Shown piece after piece: positions 9,107 to 56,967 of a stretch of 64,000 nt of DNA. This stretch comes from Permianibacter aggregans. Its GTDB lineage: Bacteria; Pseudomonadota; Gammaproteobacteria; Enterobacterales; Permianibacteraceae. Every line of letters begins with the position of its first letter. The first letter of the stretch is position 1. The position numbers and the translations under genes are program-made. The DNA is taken from positions 2,666,001-2,730,000 of the forward strand of contig NZ_CP037953.1 of NCBI RefSeq assembly GCF_009756665.1. The letters run 5' to 3'. The notes under the pieces were generated by a model. That model saw only the letters and a list, made by a program, of their open reading frames with translations. It was not told the origin of the DNA and searched no databases.

Positions 9107-11998
9107 ATGAGCCAGCCCAGTTTGACCCAGTTGGAAAAGCACGACGGTTTTGTCGCCCGTCATATCGGCCCGAGTGATCAAGAAATCTCCGCGATGTTGC
9201 AATCGCTCGGCGTTTCGACGCTGGAAGAGTTGACCACGCAAATCGTGCCGGAATCGATTCGCCTGCGTGAAGACTTGGCGCTGAAACCGGCGATGAGCGA
9301 ACACGAAACGCTGCAATACCTGAAAAAACTGGCCGGCAAAAACAAAATCTACAAGAGCTTTATCGGTACCGGTTACTACGACACGATTACGCCGCCGGTG
9401 ATTCTGCGCAACGTGCTGGAAAATCCTGGCTGGTACACCGCTTACACGCCATACCAACCGGAAATCGCGCAAGGCCGTTTGGAAACGCTGTTGAACTATC
9501 AACAGATGGTCGTGGATTTGACCGGTTTGGCCATTGCCAATGCCTCATTGCTTGACGAAGCGACCGCCGCCGCCGAAGCGATGGCCTTGGCCCGCCGCGG
9601 TTCAAAAAGCAAAAGCAATCTGTTCTTTATCGACGAAGACACCCATCCGCAAACGATCGACGTCACGCGCACCCGTGCCGACGCCTATGGTTTCGAAACG
9701 GTTGTTGGTCCAGTTACCGATGCATTGAAGCATGACTATTTCGGCGTACTGTTGTCGTACCCGTCTTCCAGTGGCCAGGTCAATGACTTGAGCGGTTTGA
9801 TCGCCGCGCTACAAGAACGCAAAACGCTGGTGACGCTGGCGACCGATTTGCTGGCGCTGTGCGTACTGAAATCGCCGGGTGAGCTTGGCGCTGATATTGC
9901 CATCGGTTCCGCGCAGCGCTTCGGTGTGCCATTTGGTTTCGGCGGCCCGCACGCGGCATTCCTGGCCGCCAAAGACGAATTCAAACGCTCAATGCCGGGC
10001 CGCATCATCGGCGTCTCGGTCGACAAGCGTGGCAATAAAGCGCTGCGCATGGCGATGCAAACCCGCGAGCAACATATCCGTCGCGAAAAAGCCAACTCCA
10101 ACATCTGTACCGCTCAAGTTTTGCTGTCGAACATGGCGGCGCTGTATGCGATGTATCACGGCCCGCAAGGCTTGAAAGATATTGCCACCCGTGTGCACCG
10201 TTTGATGGCGATTTTTGTTGCCGGCATGCGCGCCAAAGGCGCTCAAGTCGATACCAAAGCCTTCTTCGATACCGTCACCATTGATGTTGGTGCCGTACGC
10301 GAGCAAGTGTACATGCGTGCGCTATCGAACAAGATGAATCTGCGTCTGATTGGCGACAGCAAACTGTGCATTGCGTTTGATGAGAAAACCACGCGCGACG
10401 ACGTCAAAGTACTGTGGGAAGTGTTCCTGCAAGACGAAGCCGAAGGCCTCAGCATTGAACAACTTGATGCGCTGTATGCCGCTGAAGATCTGCAAGACGT
10501 GCCAGACCAACTGCAACGCACCAGCGAATACCTGAGCCATCCGGTGTTCAACAAATACCACAGCGAAACCGACATGCTGCGCTATTTGAAAATGCTCGAG
10601 AACAAAGACTTCTCGTTGACCCACGGCATGATCCCGCTCGGTTCCTGCACGATGAAGCTGAACGCGACGACCGAAATGATGCCGGTGACCTGGCCGGAAT
10701 TCGGCAACATCCATCCGTTTGCACCGCTGGTGCAAGCACAGGGTTACCTGGACATGATCCACGAGCTGGAACACCAGCTGAAAGCGATCACCGGTTTCGA
10801 TGCCATCAGCATTCAGCCGAACTCAGGCGCCCAAGGTGAATACGCGGGCTTGCTGACCATTCGCAAATACCACGAATCGCGCGGCGAAGGTCATCGCACC
10901 ATTTGCTTGATCCCGCAATCGGCGCACGGCACCAACCCGGCCTCGGCGCAAATGGCCAACTACCGCGTCGTCGTTACCGCCTGCGATAAAGAAGGCAATA
11001 TCGATTTCGCTGATCTGGAAGCGAAAGTCAAAGAGCACGCCGATAACCTCGCTTGCTTGATGATGACCTATCCGTCGACGCACGGCGTTTACGAAGAAGG
11101 CGCGAAGAAAATTTGCGACTTGATCCACGCGCACGGTGGTCAGGTGTACATGGATGGTGCCAACCTGAACGCACAAGTCGGTTTGACGATGCCGGCGCGC
11201 ATCGGTGCTGACGTATCGCACATGAACCTGCACAAAACTTTCTGTATTCCACACGGCGGCGGTGGCCCTGGCATGGGCCCGATCGGTGTTCGCGCCCATT
11301 TGGCGCCGTTCCTGCCGAACCACGCGGTCGTGCACTTGGAAGGTCCAAATCCGGGTAACGGCGCTGTCAGTGCCGCGCCTTGGGGCAGCGCTTCGATTCT
11401 GCCGATTTCCTGGTCGTATATCGCGATGATGGGCGGCGAAGGTTTGCGCCGCGCTACGCAAGTCGCGATCCTGAACGCCAACTACATGATGAAGCGCTTA
11501 AGCGAACATTACCCGGTGCTGTACACCGGCCGTAACGATCGCGTTGCGCACGAATGCATCATCGATATTCGCCCGATCAAGGAAGCCAGCGGCATCTCTG
11601 AAGAAGACATCGCCAAGCGTTTGATGGACTACGGCTTCCACGCGCCAACGATGAGCTTCCCGGTTGCCGGCACACTGATGATCGAGCCGACCGAAAGCGA
11701 ATCGAAAGAAGAACTCGATCGTTTCTGCGACGCGATGATTGCGATCAAAAAAGAAATCGACAACGTGCAAAGCGGCAAATGGCCATTGGACAACAACCCG
11801 CTGGTCAACGCCCCGCACACACTGGCCGATATCACCGAAATGGACTGGAATCGTCCGTACTCACGTGAAGAAGCGGTGTTCCCAATGCCGGGTCAAAAAG
11901 CCAATAAATTCTGGCCGGCTGTCAACCGTATCGACAACGTCTACGGCGACCGCAACTTGTTCTGCGTCTGCCCACCGATGGAAGATTACGCAGCTTGA
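9107..11998 (+). CDS. gcvP: glycine dehydrogenase (decarboxylating), P-protein
   Basis: A 963-residue PLP enzyme that decarboxylates glycine and loads the aminomethyl group on lipoyl-GcvH. It is the fused homodimeric type, of normal length. The PLP-binding lysine is Lys710 in [18 protein letters not shown]. The N-terminus [12 protein letters not shown] and the [21 protein letters not shown] region (seen in two parts) are typical. ATG 9107 has an AAGG site eight bases upstream; the longer frame from 8990 only reads through the repeat. A strong bidirectional terminator follows at 12013. Confidence 0.95.
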
Positions 11999-12080: not shown

Positions 12081-12695
12081 CTATCCACTTTTAGTGGCGT
12101 CGTCTAGTGCTGTGTTGCAAAGATCTTTTAGAAACGCCGTAGGAAAGCGTATGTTTATACGCCCTTGCTCACTCGAAATTATTTGCTGGCTTTCGTGTTT
12201 TGGAACAATCCAGACAATATTTTCTAAAAAATAATCGCCTTTAATTGCATTAATAAATACAAAGTACAGTCGATAACTCAAATCTCGATTATGAAAGGCT
12301 TCCCAAACATTATTAAGAGCATCTAGTTCAATTTTTTCCTGAGCTATCCCAGGAGTGCTTATTAAGTGTAAGTTTGTATAGTTCTTTGCTCTGTCCAATA
12401 CTGCAACCAAAGAGTTTGATTCCTGGGAAAAGTAACTAAGAATTTTATTGTCTAATTCTATGGACAATATATCTCCGGTTAGACTTAGATGAACATGAAC
12501 TTTACAAAATATAAGCTCTGAAAGGTATTGAAACTTCTGGCTTTCGTAAATTATGCATTCATATGCAAACCCAAATGTTTCTGCGCTTTCTCTCTCTGGA
12601 GTTGAGAACTGAACATCTTTGGTGAGTTGGGCGAGTAGAGCTCCTAAAAAGAAGTCCTTGTCGGATGCACTTTTTATTTCGGATGGCTTAACTAT
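12081..12695 (-). pseudogene. 3' part of an IS-interrupted proteasome-like Ntn-hydrolase gene
   Basis: The open frame on the minus strand runs without a stop from the left end of the IS (first full codons ATA-GTT-AAG within the target duplication) to TAG at 12081-12083, about 204 residues. Read from the IS border it starts IVKPSEIKSASDKDFFLGAL. The 5' fragment on the other side of the IS ends GEKGPIVK, so removing the IS (1309 bp) and one 8-bp duplication (total 1317 bp, a multiple of three) rejoins both in frame as one 342-residue protein. This C-terminal part has no domain I can name. A TTG at 12467 could start a shorter remnant, but nothing supports its expression. AT-rich compared with its neighbours. 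Confidence 0.8.
12688..12695. repeat. target-site duplication, left copy (TTAACTAT)
   Basis: The 8-bp TTAACTAT directly abuts the left end of the IS element and is repeated exactly at 14005-14012 at the right end. Eight-base duplications are usual for IS256-family insertions. The perfect identity points to a fairly recent insertion. Confidence 0.92.
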
Positions 12696-14004
12696 GGGAC
12701 CGTTTTGATTTTTGTGTAACTGGCTTCATCATATCCTCAATAGGAGAGCATTATGAAGCCAGAAAAACCTGTCAGCACCCATACCACACTTGATGAATTA
12801 TTAGACAGTTGCAAATCAACCGAAGACTTCCAGGCACTAACCAAAGTGTTGTTCAAGCAGGTCGCGGAGCGGGCGCTGAAGGCCGAAATGGAACAGCATC
12901 TGGGTTATGACAAACACGCCGTCAAAGGTCGCAACTCCGGTAATTCACGTAACGGCCGATCGACCAAGCAAGTGCAAACCGAGCATGGCCCACTGGATAT
13001 CGAAGTCCCACGTGACCGGAATGCCGAGTTTGAACCTCGGTTTATCGGCAAGCATCAACGACGCGTTGGCAGCATAACGGACGCCATCGTGCGACTCTAC
13101 TCTTACGGCATGAGTCAGCGTGACATTCACGACTACCTGCAAGAAACCTACGGCAACGCGGTGTCACCGGCGCTGATAAGCCAGGTGACCGAACAGGTTA
13201 TGGATGAAGTACAACAATGGCAGAAGCGACCACTCGATTCGACTTATGCGATTGTCTATCTCGATGCCTTGGTGACGAAGTCGCGGCAGGATGGCATGGT
13301 CGGCAATCGCTCCGTGTATGTAGCGCTGGGCATCAACATGCGCGGTGAGAAAGAGATTTTAGGGTTATGGTTGGCCAGCAGTGAAGGCGCCAAGTTCTGG
13401 TTAAGCGTTATCAATGAACTGAAAAATCGCGGCGTCAATGACGTATTGATTGCTGTGTCGATGGCCTTAAAGGCTTCTCGGAAGCGATTAATGCGGTCTA
13501 CCCGCAGACCCATGTGCAGCAATGCATCGTCCATCAAGTGCGTCACTCGCTGCACTTCGTCCCTTGGAAAGAGCGTAAGGCCGTGGCGGCCGATTTACGG
13601 TTGATTTATCGAGCGGCAACGGAAAGCGAAGCACAGCGGGCGCTGGCTGAATTTGAACAGAACTGGGGCGGGAAGTATCCGCATATTGGGCCGAGCTGGC
13701 GTAACAACTGGACACGGTTGACGGTGTTCTTTGATTATCCCCGGAGATACGGAAAATCATCTACACGACCAACGCGATTGAATCACTCAACGCCAGCTTG
13801 CAGAAAGTGTTGAAGCCCAAGAAAGCCTTCCCGAATGACGAGGCAATCTTGAAGGTGTTGTACTTAACCTTGCATCGGATCGCGGAAAAGTGGACGATGC
13901 CGGTACACGATTGGAAAGCCGCACTGAATCAGTTGTTGATCGTGTTCGGCGAAGACCGCGTGAAGGTGTAAATCCGCCAGTTACACAAAATTCTGGACAG
14001 TCTC
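12696..14004 (+). mobile_element. IS256-family insertion sequence, complete ends, 1309 bp
   Basis: The element is bounded by imperfect 29-bp terminal inverted repeats (12696-12724 and 13976-14004), matching at 23 of 29 positions and starting GGGAC / GAGAC. They are flanked by the 8-bp direct duplication TTAACTAT. Its single transposase gene (12753-13971) belongs to the IS256/mutator group but carries two one-base deletions. The element lies inside, and on the opposite strand to, a host gene whose halves lie at 12081-12695 and 14005-14426. It is a simple IS without passenger genes. Confidence 0.93.
12753..13971 (+). pseudogene. IS256-family (mutator) transposase, two frameshifts
   Basis: Restoring one base near 13455-13458 (GTGTCGAT where GTGGTCGAT is expected) and one C in the CCCC at 13739-13742 gives a 406-residue DDE transposase, normal for IS256. 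Frame 1 ends with the first Asp region (IVYLDALVTK). The first deletion falls exactly at the second Asp motif, VVDGLKGF. The remaining frames give MQQCIVHQVRHSLHFVPW, then TTNAIESLN with the catalytic Glu, and the final stop at 13969-13971. Both lesions are in short homopolymers, so either decay or a sequencing/assembly error is possible. As written, the protein is truncated and inactive. Confidence 0.9.
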
Positions 14005-14012
14005 TTAACTAT
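14005..14012. repeat. target-site duplication, right copy (TTAACTAT)
   Basis: Exact copy of the 8-bp sequence at 12688-12695, directly after the right inverted repeat of the IS. Together they define the insertion point within the Ile-Val-Lys codons of the interrupted gene. Confidence 0.92.
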
Positions 14013-14426
14013 TGGGCCCTTTTCCCCCAGTACTCTCTGGCACTCTAGCCTTCCTGTTCCTTGGTATTGGGGTTCAGAGAAATTGATTTTGTGCGGAATT
14101 TTGCAAGACCATCGAAACGCTCTTGGCTTATCCGTAACAAGCCAGCCAATAATTGATAGTTGGATCGAAGTGTCTTCTGGCTCGGGTATGTTGGCAAGAA
14201 TGTTTTCTAAATTCGCTTTGCTCAACTCTACGTGAGCGTTGTCTTTCAAGTATCGAAGGGCAATCTCCGCATATCTTAGCGAGCCGGTCCAAGCTACCGC
14301 CAAATTTTGGTTAATAATACAAACCTTTTTTCTAAGTCCTGCAACGCTACCGTCATCCCATGAAAGTAGAAAATCTCCAATTAAAGCTGGCGTGTCATGC
14401 AAACGAAATGCTGCGACAAGAGTCAT
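14005..14426 (-). pseudogene. 5' part of an IS-interrupted proteasome-like Ntn-hydrolase gene
   Basis: Starts ATG at 14426 with MTLVAAFRLHDTPALIGDFL and continues to GPIVK at the IS border; the frame then reads into the IS and stops at 13929. If Met is removed, Thr becomes residue 1, Asp of GDF is residue 17 and the second Lys of RKKV is residue 33. These are exactly the Thr1/Asp17/Lys33 positions of HslV and proteasome beta subunits. An AVAWTGS segment aligns with the AGFAGG turn of HslV. The family is therefore inferred to be an Ntn-hydrolase of the proteasome fold, full length about 342 residues with the part at 12081-12695. No partner ATPase is adjacent, and no strong ribosome site is seen. 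Confidence 0.75.
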
Positions 14427-55071: not shown

Positions 55072-55617
55072 ATGGAACAAATGCATGGAACGACCATTGT
55101 GTCGGTTCGCCGTAATGGTGTGGTCGTGGTCGGTGGCGATGGCCAGGTGACGCTGGGTAATACGGTCATGAAGGGCAATGCCCGTAAGGTGCGCAAGCTC
55201 TACAACGGTAAAGTGTTGGCCGGGTTTGCTGGTGGTACCGCTGATGCCTTTACGTTGTTCGAGCGTTTTGAAGCGAAGCTGGAGCAATTCGGTGGTCGCT
55301 TGCAGCGTGCCGCCGTGGAACTGGCCAAAGACTGGCGCACGGAACGTTCGCTGCGCCGTCTGGAAGCGCTGTTAATTGTCGCCGACAAGGAATGTAGCTT
55401 GATCATTACTGGCAATGGCGACGTGCTGGAGCCAGAGGATTGTTTGCTGGCCGTCGGTTCCGGTGGCCCGTTCGCCCAATCAGCCGCCCGTGCGCTGCTC
55501 GATCACACTGATATGGGCGCCAAGGAAATTGTTGAGGCCGCGCTCAATATCGCTGGCGATATCTGTATTTACACCAATCACAACCGCACCATTGAGTCAC
55601 TCAGCACTGAAAGCTGA
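55072..55617 (+). CDS. hslV: ATP-dependent protease subunit HslV
   Basis: A 181-residue proteasome-like peptidase subunit. After a short propeptide (MEQMHG) the mature nucleophile Thr begins [10 protein letters not shown], with Asp17 (GGDG) and Lys33 (ARKV) in mature numbering. The [21 protein letters not shown] core and [15 protein letters not shown] end are typical. ATG 55072 follows AGGAG. The open frame extends to 54997 without similarity. It forms the HslVU complex with the next gene. Confidence 0.96.
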
Positions 55618-55644: not shown

Positions 55645-56967
55645 GTGAGCTCTGTAATCAATCCGATGACGCCGCGCGAAATCGTCCATGAACTTGACAA
55701 ACATATTATCGGCCAGAAAGATGCCAAGCGTGCCGTCGCTATTGCGCTACGCAATCGCTGGCGCCGGATGAATGTCGATGAATCGCTGCGCGAAGAAATC
55801 ACGCCGAAAAATATTCTGATGATAGGACCAACGGGTGTCGGTAAAACCGAGATTGCCCGCCGTCTGGCGCGCCTTGCCAATGCGCCGTTTATCAAAGTCG
55901 AAGCGACCAAGTTCACCGAAGTCGGTTACGTTGGTAAAGACGTTGACAGCATCATTCGTGATTTGGTTGATGTCGCCGCCAAGATGATTCGTGAACAGGA
56001 AGTCGAAAAGGTCAAACACCGGGCCATGGATGCTGCAGAAGATCGTATTCTCGATGTGTTGCTGCCGCCGGCGCGTGGTTTTGATGAGAATCCACCGGAC
56101 TCCAATACTCGTCAGATCTTCCGCAAGAAACTGCGCGAAGGCCAACTTGACGACAAGGAGATCGAAATCCAGGTCAGTGGCCCGTCAATGAATGTTGAGA
56201 TCATGACGCCGCCTGGTATGGAGGAAATGACTTCGCAATTGCAGAGCATGTTCCAGAATCTGTCGCCGAACCGCTCACAAACGCGCAAGCTGAAGATTCG
56301 TGAGGCGATGAAGCTGCTAACTGAAGAAGAAGCCGAGCGACTGGTCAATCATGACGAGATCAAGCAAACGGCCGTCAACTCGGTTGAGCAGAACGGTATC
56401 GTCTTTCTGGATGAGATCGACAAAGTCGCCAAGCGCAGTGATCACGGCGGTGCCGATGTCTCGCGCGAAGGTGTGCAGCGCGACCTGCTGCCGTTGATTG
56501 AAGGCAGTACTGTCAGCACCAAATACGGCATGATCAAGACTGACCACATTTTGTTTATCGCTTCCGGTGCGTTCAGCTTTGCCAAACCTTCCGATTTGAT
56601 TCCTGAACTGCAAGGCCGCTTGCCGATTCGCGTCGAGTTGAAAGCCCTGACGGTAGACGATTTCAAACAGATTCTGACCGAGCCGGATGCCTCGCTGACC
56701 AAGCAATACACAGCACTGCTCGGTACCGAAGAGGTGGAGCTGAAATTCACGGAGGACGGTATTCAGCGCATCGCGGAGATTGCCTTTTCGGTCAATGAAA
56801 ACACCGAGAATATTGGCGCTCGTCGTCTGCACACGGTGCTGGAGCGTTTGCTGGATGAAGTCTCATTCGATACCAAGAAAGGCGAGTTTGTTATTGACGG
56901 TGCTTACGTTGACAAACAGCTTGGCGAACTGGTCAAGAATGAAGACTTGAGCCGCTATATTCTTTAA
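55645..56967 (+). CDS. hslU: ATP-dependent protease ATPase subunit HslU
   Basis: A 440-residue AAA+ unfoldase that feeds substrates into HslV. Seen: [17 protein letters not shown], Walker [16 protein letters not shown], the pore loop GYVGKDV, the I-domain insert (about 110-245), Walker B VFLDEIDK, and the HslV-contacting C-terminal tail ending DLSRYIL. It starts GTG 55645 with AAGGA seven bases upstream. Confidence 0.96.

What the first reader, a model, noticed from the sequence alone, without database searches (positions are those of the whole stretch)
12081..14426. IS insertion hides a proteasome-like Ntn-hydrolase gene with Thr1/Asp17/Lys33 register
The two minus-strand fragments (14005-14426 and 12081-12695) each carry one copy of the target duplication, and the IS plus one duplication is 1317 bp, an exact multiple of three. 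Rejoined they give a 342-residue protein. After Met removal its N-terminus has Thr1, Asp17 (GDF) and Lys33 (RKKV), with an AVAWTGS turn, all at the positions seen in HslV encoded at 55072 (Thr1, GGD with Asp17, ARK with Lys33). At 342 residues it is nearly twice the size of HslV, and its C-terminal ~200 residues match nothing I know. It has no neighbouring ATPase, so it would be a stand-alone, AT-rich, probably horizontally spread Ntn-hydrolase with an unexplored role.
Basis: partly seen in the sequence, partly recalled or inferred. Interest (0 to 1): 0.85.

Follow-up and report, generated by a model that had tools for sequence, protein, structure and literature searches.

The report
Broken proteasome-like gene of mobile islands
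A transposon has cut in two a rare, AT-rich gene for a stand-alone cousin of the proteasome; intact relatives sit on plasmids, in a probable provirus and inside a DNA-restriction operon, which hints at a role in bacterial conflicts with mobile DNA.

Summary
An IS256-family element (window 12696-14004, 8-bp target duplication) interrupts a minus-strand gene; by arithmetic the frame is kept. The N-terminal piece belongs to a divergent family with six intact genes at five other loci (leave-one-out profile E 1.1e-15): Oscillatoria and Ca. Tenderia plasmids, a Mariprofundus MAG, a probable provirus, and a tandem pair on another viral-collection contig. Models of two relatives, of low mean confidence, match 20S proteasome subunits (best Z 16.3). 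So it is a proteasome-like Ntn-hydrolase, inactivated here. The relatives' core runs past the break; about 100-125 C-terminal residues are an unassigned extension. The C-terminal piece alone has no significant match. No unfoldase gene was recognised beside it. In Oscillatoria the gene lies between hsdS and hsdR, a slot that holds toxin-type or RT-domain genes in three of four related operons inspected. Best guess: stand-alone conflict cargo. Twenty-two proteasome-like subfamilies were published in 2021; whether this is one of them could not be tested.

The parts
14005..14426 (-). N-terminal piece of the interrupted proteasome-like gene: ATG, then Thr1 codon 14421-14423, Asp17 14373-14375, Lys33 14325-14327, Gly47 14283-14285
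   Evidence: Translation; leave-one-out family profile E 1.1e-15, best of 928 window ORFs, 54.3 bits against at most 3.3 for 2000 shuffles; four catalytic columns invariant in 7 of 7
12081..12695 (-). C-terminal piece of the same gene (rest of the Ntn core plus C-terminal extension, inferred) and stop codon
   Evidence: Open frame, duplication and frame arithmetic; sequence match to the relatives' C-terminal halves not significant
12688..12695 (.). target-site duplication, copy 1 (TTAACTAT)
14005..14012 (.). target-site duplication, copy 2 (TTAACTAT)
12696..14004 (+). IS256-family insertion element, one of 9 full-length copies at 99-100% identity in the genome
12753..13604 (+). 5' part of the element's transposase frame (Mutator family), frameshifted; further parts in other frames to 13971
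   Evidence: PF00872 E 2.8e-68; ORF list
55072..55617 (+). HslV of the same genome, used only as the yardstick for the active-site register
   Evidence: PF00227 E 1e-23 at 55084-55593; an ORF that I take by eye for hslU follows at 55645

Best explanation
The gene encodes a stand-alone member of the proteasome-like Ntn-hydrolases. Removal of the start Met (expected because residue 2 is Thr) would expose Thr1 as the nucleophile, with Lys33 and Asp17 as its partners and Gly47 in the oxyanion hole. The alpha-beta-beta-alpha core (about 220-264 residues in the relatives) is followed by a C-terminal extension of about 100-125 residues, which probably decides what is bound. The gene travels as single, AT-rich cargo of plasmids, viral elements and restriction islands, and I think it most likely acts as a conflict effector: a peptidase, or possibly a peptide ligase, of narrow specificity, kept quiet in the healthy cell and turned on a phage or host protein during attack by foreign DNA. 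In this genome a probably recent IS256 insertion has inactivated it. Shown: the break, the family, the conserved active site, the predicted fold of two relatives, the AT-rich patchy carriage, and one seat in a slot of variable cargo genes. Inferred: Met removal, catalysis, substrate, and the defence role (I put the conflict role at about 0.5; the fold and family at about 0.95).
For: Active site: Thr1, Asp17, Lys33, Gly47 identical in 7 of 7 rows at 19.5-28.5% pairwise identity, one 91% pair apart; chance that four preset positions are all among the 11 invariant of 140 is 2e-5; Lys-to-Gly spacing is 14 in every row. In the first gene of the tandem pair a GTG preceded by GGTGGAGG puts Thr second. 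Fold: Foldseek E 4.4e-4 and VIA Z 10.6 for the Mariprofundus relative; E 4.5e-6 and Z 16.3, rmsd 2.4 over 158 residues, for the provirus relative, several alignments to chain K of yeast 20S entries (beta5 by recall) beginning with model residue 2 on chain residue 1. The family profile against PDB sequences gives 14 hits at E up to 10, all proteasome alpha chains, best E 0.028. Carriage: G+C below that of the stretch held around it at all six loci; plasmids; near a phage integrase. Slot: hsdS ends at 9999, the gene is 10001-11182, hsdR starts at 11163; the same slot in four related operons holds a short DarT-family gene plus an RT-domain gene, Fic plus HigB genes, nothing, or a nucleotidyltransferase/DUF86 pair plus PIN genes.
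Against: Both models have low mean confidence (pLDDT 46 and 51); in the second, 97 of 369 residues are at 70 or more. No member matches Pfam, PF00227 included (0 of 7 at E up to 10; the tool's filters lose most matches above 0.1). Comparison with a 15-sequence HslV profile is not significant (E 0.033; 1 of 100 column-shuffled controls scores higher). The conflict role rests on one operon: 0 of 4 related operons inspected carry the gene, and tblastn of the Oscillatoria protein finds a relative in only one other plasmid record, Tenderia, although 673 records match its HsdR. PADLOC models give no hit to P0001, P0002 or P0003. The Mariprofundus copy sits among ordinary chromosomal genes. The C piece has no significant match of its own.
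Confidence: 0.62

Rival explanations
1. Element-serving protein: phages and plasmids carry it for their own benefit (counter-defence or processing of their own proteins); PPH and AAH are proteasome homologues that phages carry.
For: One relative lies near a phage integrase on a viral-collection contig, one on a mobilizable plasmid that also encodes an antirestriction protein. PMC8665760 reports PPH and AAH in phages.
Against: No match in 50,697 phage records with three family members as queries; the Oscillatoria copy is inside a restriction operon and the Mariprofundus copy among ordinary chromosomal genes.
Confidence: 0.15
2. Connectase-like peptide ligase or maturation enzyme: the core joins or trims one dedicated partner protein instead of degrading proteins.
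For: Five of seven rows carry 22-25 extra residues between Asp17 and Lys33, by position (inferred) the S3/S4 site where connectase has its substrate lid (PMC8665760); no unfoldase gene recognised beside any copy.
Against: The window and Tenderia proteins lack the insertion; both models show helices H1 and H2, which connectase lacks; no partner peptide was looked for.
Confidence: 0.12
3. Dedicated control protease of the neighbouring type I restriction enzyme, doing locally what ClpXP does to HsdR in restriction alleviation.
For: Tight packing between hsdS and hsdR in Oscillatoria; proteolysis of HsdR is a known control point (PMC4231737, abstract and start of introduction read).
Against: Only one of six loci is next to recognised hsd genes; four related operons do without it; the window locus shows none beside it.
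Confidence: 0.08
4. Not an Ntn-hydrolase: the register in the window is a coincidence and the models are artefacts of thin alignments.
For: Low pLDDT; no Pfam match; insignificant HslV profile comparison. The two models share one set of five rows, so they are not fully independent.
Against: Four active-site columns invariant in 7 of 7; two models from different query sequences both give only proteasome entries in the rows listed, best Z 16.3.
Confidence: 0.03

Closest known systems
20S proteasome beta subunits (and alpha, by fold)
   Same: Predicted fold (Z up to 16.3), Thr1/Asp17/Lys33/Gly47, 14-residue Lys33-Gly47 spacing
   Different: No Pfam PF00227 match, Thr directly after Met instead of a propeptide, C-terminal extension of about 100-125 residues, no companion subunit or unfoldase recognised beside the gene
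HslV (present in the same window at 55072)
   Same: Thr1, Asp17, Lys33 in the same register
   Different: HslV is about 175 residues and followed by an hslU-like ORF; the family here is 342-393 residues, without such a neighbour, and AT-rich; profile comparison not significant
22 divergent proteasome-like subfamilies of Fuchs, Alva and Lupas 2021 (DAH, RPC, PMI-1 to 6, GPH, PPH and others)
   Same: Same superfamily, patchy distribution, insertions at S3/S4 in PMI-5/6, C-terminal extra domains in DAH and RPC, no AAA+ partners identified; DAH is listed in proteobacteria, cyanobacteria and phages, among others
   Different: Their sequences are not held here, so identity with one of them (DAH looks the likeliest by distribution and extra domain) is open; that paper reports no genome context suggestive of a function, whereas one member here is in a restriction operon
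Connectase
   Same: Proteasome homologue that works alone; insertion at the S3/S4 site in five of seven rows here
   Different: Models here contain the H1/H2 helices that connectase lacks; two rows have no insertion
PrrC and similar restriction-linked effectors
   Same: Possible logic: an effector gene inside a type I restriction locus
   Different: PrrC is an anticodon nuclease; no mechanism is shown here. PrrC facts from the abstract start of PMC2610378 in a search listing

Membership tests
Proteasome-like Ntn-hydrolase superfamily | Thr (or Ser) that becomes the N-terminus | tested here: met
   Thr directly after the start codon in 7 of 7 rows, the start being my choice for the tandem pair and Mariprofundus, where frames extend upstream; a ribosome-binding-like GGTGGAGG supports it in the first tandem gene. 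Met removal itself is inferred
Proteasome-like Ntn-hydrolase superfamily | Asp17, Lys33 and oxyanion Gly47 | tested here: met
   7 of 7 by alignment; exact numbering in the window piece, one less for Lys and Gly in Tenderia, 22-25 more in five rows with an insertion
Proteasome-like Ntn-hydrolase superfamily | Core of strands S1-S11 with flanking helices (alpha-beta-beta-alpha) | tested here: met
   Models of two relatives, not of the window protein, of low mean pLDDT:
Proteasome-like Ntn-hydrolase superfamily | Hydrolase or ligase activity at Thr1 | not testable with these tools
   needs purified protein
Pfam PF00227 (proteasome/HslV, sequence level) | Score over the curated cut-off | tested here: not met
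   0 of 7 members match any Pfam model at E up to 10; in the own genome PF00227 finds only HslV
HslV | hslU ATPase partner next to the gene | tested here: not met
   None recognised by eye at the window locus or at the relatives' loci
PPH / RPC | Absence of helix H2 (PMC8665760) | tested here: not met
   Second helix predicted at 94-104 in the provirus relative and 96-105 in Mariprofundus
Connectase | Absence of the first helix pair H1/H2 (PMC8665760) | tested here: not met
   H1 and H2 predicted in both models
Anbu and BPH | Closest structural or sequence match to these | tested here: inconclusive
   Not recognised among the 50 PDB rows shown in each, which excludes nothing
DAH, PMI-1 to 6, GPH and other 2021 subfamilies | Clustering with their sequences | not testable with these tools
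   Their sequences are not held; only the paper's text was read
Known anti-phage defence systems (PADLOC 2.0.0) | Match to a PADLOC model | tested here: not met
   No hit for P0001, P0002 at E up to 10 or P0003 at E up to 0.01; P0004-P0008 not scanned

The most novel reading that the evidence does not exclude
An undescribed subfamily of stand-alone proteasome homologues that serves as anti-phage or anti-plasmid effector cargo, held inactive by a host system such as a type I restriction enzyme and released when that system is disturbed: a proteolytic counterpart of PrrC.
Probability: 0.2. Interest if true: 0.85.

Novelty: new member of a known kind. Interest (0 to 1): 0.52.

Why it matters
Divergent proteasome homologues in bacteria are numerous and mostly without a known function; the 2021 survey reports no genome context suggestive of one. 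This small family gives a lead: a gene packed between hsdS and hsdR, in a slot where three of four related operons inspected carry toxin-type, nucleotidyltransferase/DUF86 or reverse-transcriptase genes. That makes a concrete, cheap test possible of whether a proteasome-like enzyme takes part in defence against mobile DNA.

Tried and rejected
Family libraries: Pfam, NCBIfam, PADLOC and PHROGs gave no usable match to either piece (PHROG 32249 at E 0.19 set aside). Relatives were scanned with Pfam and NCBIfam only, P0003 also with PADLOC: no usable match; one phosphomevalonate-kinase hit at E 0.035 was set aside as chance. PDB by sequence with single proteins gave only scattered weak hits, none of them named proteasome chains. 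Phage records: none. A Halobaculum plasmid hit (E 0.1, under an ABC-transporter annotation) was dropped as chance. One genome-contig scan with the window piece alone found nothing; the second found only Mariprofundus, the same gene as L007. Eight viral-contig scans gave two contigs with relatives. These pattern scans are insensitive for so divergent a family, so it is probably larger than seen.

Rarity: 1 of 59 relatives, the genome itself; 2 of 369 of the class with the single sequence and the same 2 of 369 with the profile; 2 of 398 of the phylum; 1 of 78 of the Mariprofundus class and 1 of 11 of the Tenderia order, both the carrier already known. The window genome is counted.

Empty site: in the same-genus genome G001, pip and the genes upstream of it keep their order, but no gcvP match lies within the roughly 8 kb fetched on the other side of pip, so no clean empty site could be shown. 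BFVD structures: four weak matches at E 0.011-0.017, none below 0.001. The HslV profile comparison used 15 of 30 PF00227 loci, those in which my script found a TT-start frame.

Literature: searches of the held library for proteasome/Ntn with restriction-modification, proteasome homologues, connectase, restriction alleviation, PrrC and genes between hsdS and hsdR: none of the listed titles and abstract starts reports a proteasome homologue inside a restriction operon. Only PMC8665760 and PMC4231737 were opened; nothing outside that library was searched.
Full report
What is there. Window 12081-14426 holds a minus-strand gene cut in two by an IS256-family element. The N piece (14005-14426) and the C piece (12081-12695) each carry the 8-bp duplication TTAACTAT; the element spans 12696-14004, has imperfect terminal repeats, belongs to the Mutator/IS256 transposase family (PF00872, E 2.8e-68), and its transposase frame is itself broken. 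Nine full-length copies at 99-100% identity, this one included, lie in the 4.27-Mb genome, so the insertion is probably recent. The gene starts 43 bases after the stop of a proline-iminopeptidase-like gene on the same strand and ends just beyond a terminator-like hairpin after gcvP (gene names and hairpin by eye and recall). Its two pieces pooled are 39.9% G+C; 0 of 596 windows elsewhere in the 64 kb are as low.

Relatives. The N piece alone found two weak plasmid matches (E 0.03 and 0.8) that both proved real: an Oscillatoria nigro-viridis plasmid gene of 393 aa and an unannotated 343-aa frame on a Candidatus Tenderia electrophaga plasmid. Alignments of these brought a Mariprofundus MAG gene, a tandem pair on an IMG/VR contig and a gene near a phage integrase on another IMG/VR contig, a probable provirus. 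A profile built from the six intact proteins without the window piece picks the window piece out of 928 window ORFs at E 1.1e-15; 2000 shuffles reach at most 3.3 bits against 54.3. The C piece is 4th of 928 (E 4.5) in the same search, aligned where the GGxxEV stretch of the family is expected; 16 of 2000 shuffles of it beat its score against a C-terminal profile. That is suggestive only.

Active site. In the seven-row alignment eleven columns occupied by the window piece are invariant. Counted from the residue after Met in the window piece, they include Thr1, Asp17, Lys33 and Gly47, the catalytic triad and oxyanion glycine of the proteasome as named in PMC8665760. Lys to Gly is 14 residues in every row. 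The Asp-Lys stretch is of proteasome length in the window protein, one residue shorter in Tenderia, and 22-25 residues longer in the other five. A G-S/T-G motif follows where proteasomes have theirs (recalled, Ser129) in 5 of 7 rows; the tandem pair has a one-residue gap there. Pairwise identities are 19.5-28.5% except for the tandem pair (91%). For the tandem pair and Mariprofundus the frames extend upstream of the Met-Thr start that I chose; a GGTGGAGG before the GTG supports it in the first tandem gene.

Fold. AlphaFold2 models were made for the Mariprofundus and provirus proteins with the same five permitted rows, so they are not fully independent. Mean pLDDT is low (46 and 51), but the order of strands and helices, compared by eye, is that of a proteasome subunit, and in the second model the ten-residue means are 66-90 for residues 1-20 and 61-150. 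The 50 Foldseek rows listed are all from proteasome entries for both (best E 4.4e-4, 2 matches at or under 0.001; best E 4.5e-6, 631 such matches). VIA-align gives Z 10.6 at best for the first (four tied rows, rmsd 3.7-4.8, 118-177 residues) and 16.3 for the second (rmsd 2.4, 158 residues), several alignments to chain K of yeast 20S entries beginning with model residue 2 on chain residue 1. By sequence, the profile's only PDB matches are 14 proteasome alpha chains, best E 0.028. A narrow HslV profile gave the right register but no significance (E 0.033; 1 of 100 shuffled controls higher). The aligned core ends at about residue 220-264 in most rows (rows end between 220 and 357, less reliably), so in the window gene the break falls within the core; about 100-125 C-terminal residues of the relatives are unassigned and were not folded on their own.

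Carriage and context. The gene is lower in G+C than the stretch held around it (gene included, except that the window value is for windows elsewhere) at all six loci: window 0.399 against 0.553, Oscillatoria 0.302 against 0.441, tandem pair 0.38-0.39 against 0.528, provirus 0.528 against 0.589, Mariprofundus 0.397 against 0.497, Tenderia 0.367 against 0.486. It is rare: 2 of 369 genomes of the class, 2 of 398 of the phylum. In Oscillatoria it is packed between hsdS (ends 9999) and hsdR (starts 11163; the gene is 10001-11182), downstream of a ubiquitin-like conjugation cluster (the ThiF protein matches PADLOC E1-E2 models). Four related hsd operons, chosen from the 12 records listed of 673, show what else this slot holds: a short DarT-family gene and a reverse-transcriptase-domain gene (Nostoc), Fic and HigB genes and a regulator (Synechocystis pSYSX), nothing (Hoyosella), a nucleotidyltransferase/DUF86 pair (MNT/HEPN by recall) and PIN genes (Synechococcus). 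None of the four carries the Ntn gene, and tblastn of the Oscillatoria protein finds a relative in only one other plasmid record, Tenderia, so the association with hsd genes is a single case. On the Tenderia plasmid a KfrA-like gene is the next annotated one upstream, and an antirestriction gene lies about 2.1 kb away across the record's start. In Mariprofundus the neighbours are ordinary chromosomal genes. I recognised no unfoldase-like ATPase directly beside any copy, but this was by eye except for ten ORFs scanned with Pfam; an ORF that looks to me like a phage RepA-type ATPase lies about 6 kb from the provirus gene.

How it most likely works. Met removal exposes Thr1; Lys33 and Asp17 activate it; the C-terminal extension and, in five of seven, the insertion between Asp17 and Lys33 shape access to the site. 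With no unfoldase beside it, the protein probably acts on a specific, accessible substrate. The patchy AT-rich carriage and the hsdS-hsdR seat make a conflict role the best guess; restriction-linked effectors such as PrrC (PMC2610378, abstract start only) show that the logic exists, and ClpXP control of HsdR (PMC4231737, abstract and start of introduction) shows that proteolysis can also serve the restriction enzyme itself. None of this is shown here.

Place among known kinds. PMC8665760 (abstract, methods, results and discussion read) lists 22 proteasome-like subfamilies, with S3/S4 insertions, C-terminal domains, phage carriage and no identified AAA+ partners among them, and says that more are likely. 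DAH fits best by distribution and extra domain, but its sequences were not at hand, so I call this a new member of a known kind and leave open whether the subfamily itself is new.

Noticed in passing
L066-L069 (Nostoc C052, Synechocystis pSYSX, Hoyosella, Synechococcus 7502 plasmids) and L004:9999-11182: The slot between hsdS and hsdR of this operon type carries different cargo in each of five cases inspected (RT-domain gene, Fic/HigB, nucleotidyltransferase/DUF86 and PIN genes, the Ntn gene, or nothing): perhaps a small hotspot for conflict genes.
   Followed up: partly
L008:2021-6527: A roughly 2-kb unit holding the Ntn gene and the end of an upstream gene is tandemly repeated (two units about 90% alike, and a third partial copy about 85% alike), so the gene has been locally amplified and is diverging.
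   Followed up: partly
window 12696-14004: The element is one of nine nearly identical full-length IS256-type copies in the genome; the window copy is 1-2 bases shorter than the others listed, in line with its frameshifted transposase.
   Followed up: partly
L004:2669-5292: A multiubiquitin, E2, ThiF and DUF6527 gene cluster lies just upstream of the hsd operon that holds the proteasome-like gene: ubiquitin-like conjugation and a proteasome homologue near each other, perhaps by chance.
   Followed up: no
L003:844-1875 / CP013100.1 882-1910: The Tenderia relative has no gene in the annotation table held for that plasmid record.
   Followed up: yes
L004:14339-15037, L066-L069: A gene annotated as SprT-family metalloprotease directly follows hsdR in all five operons inspected.
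   Followed up: no
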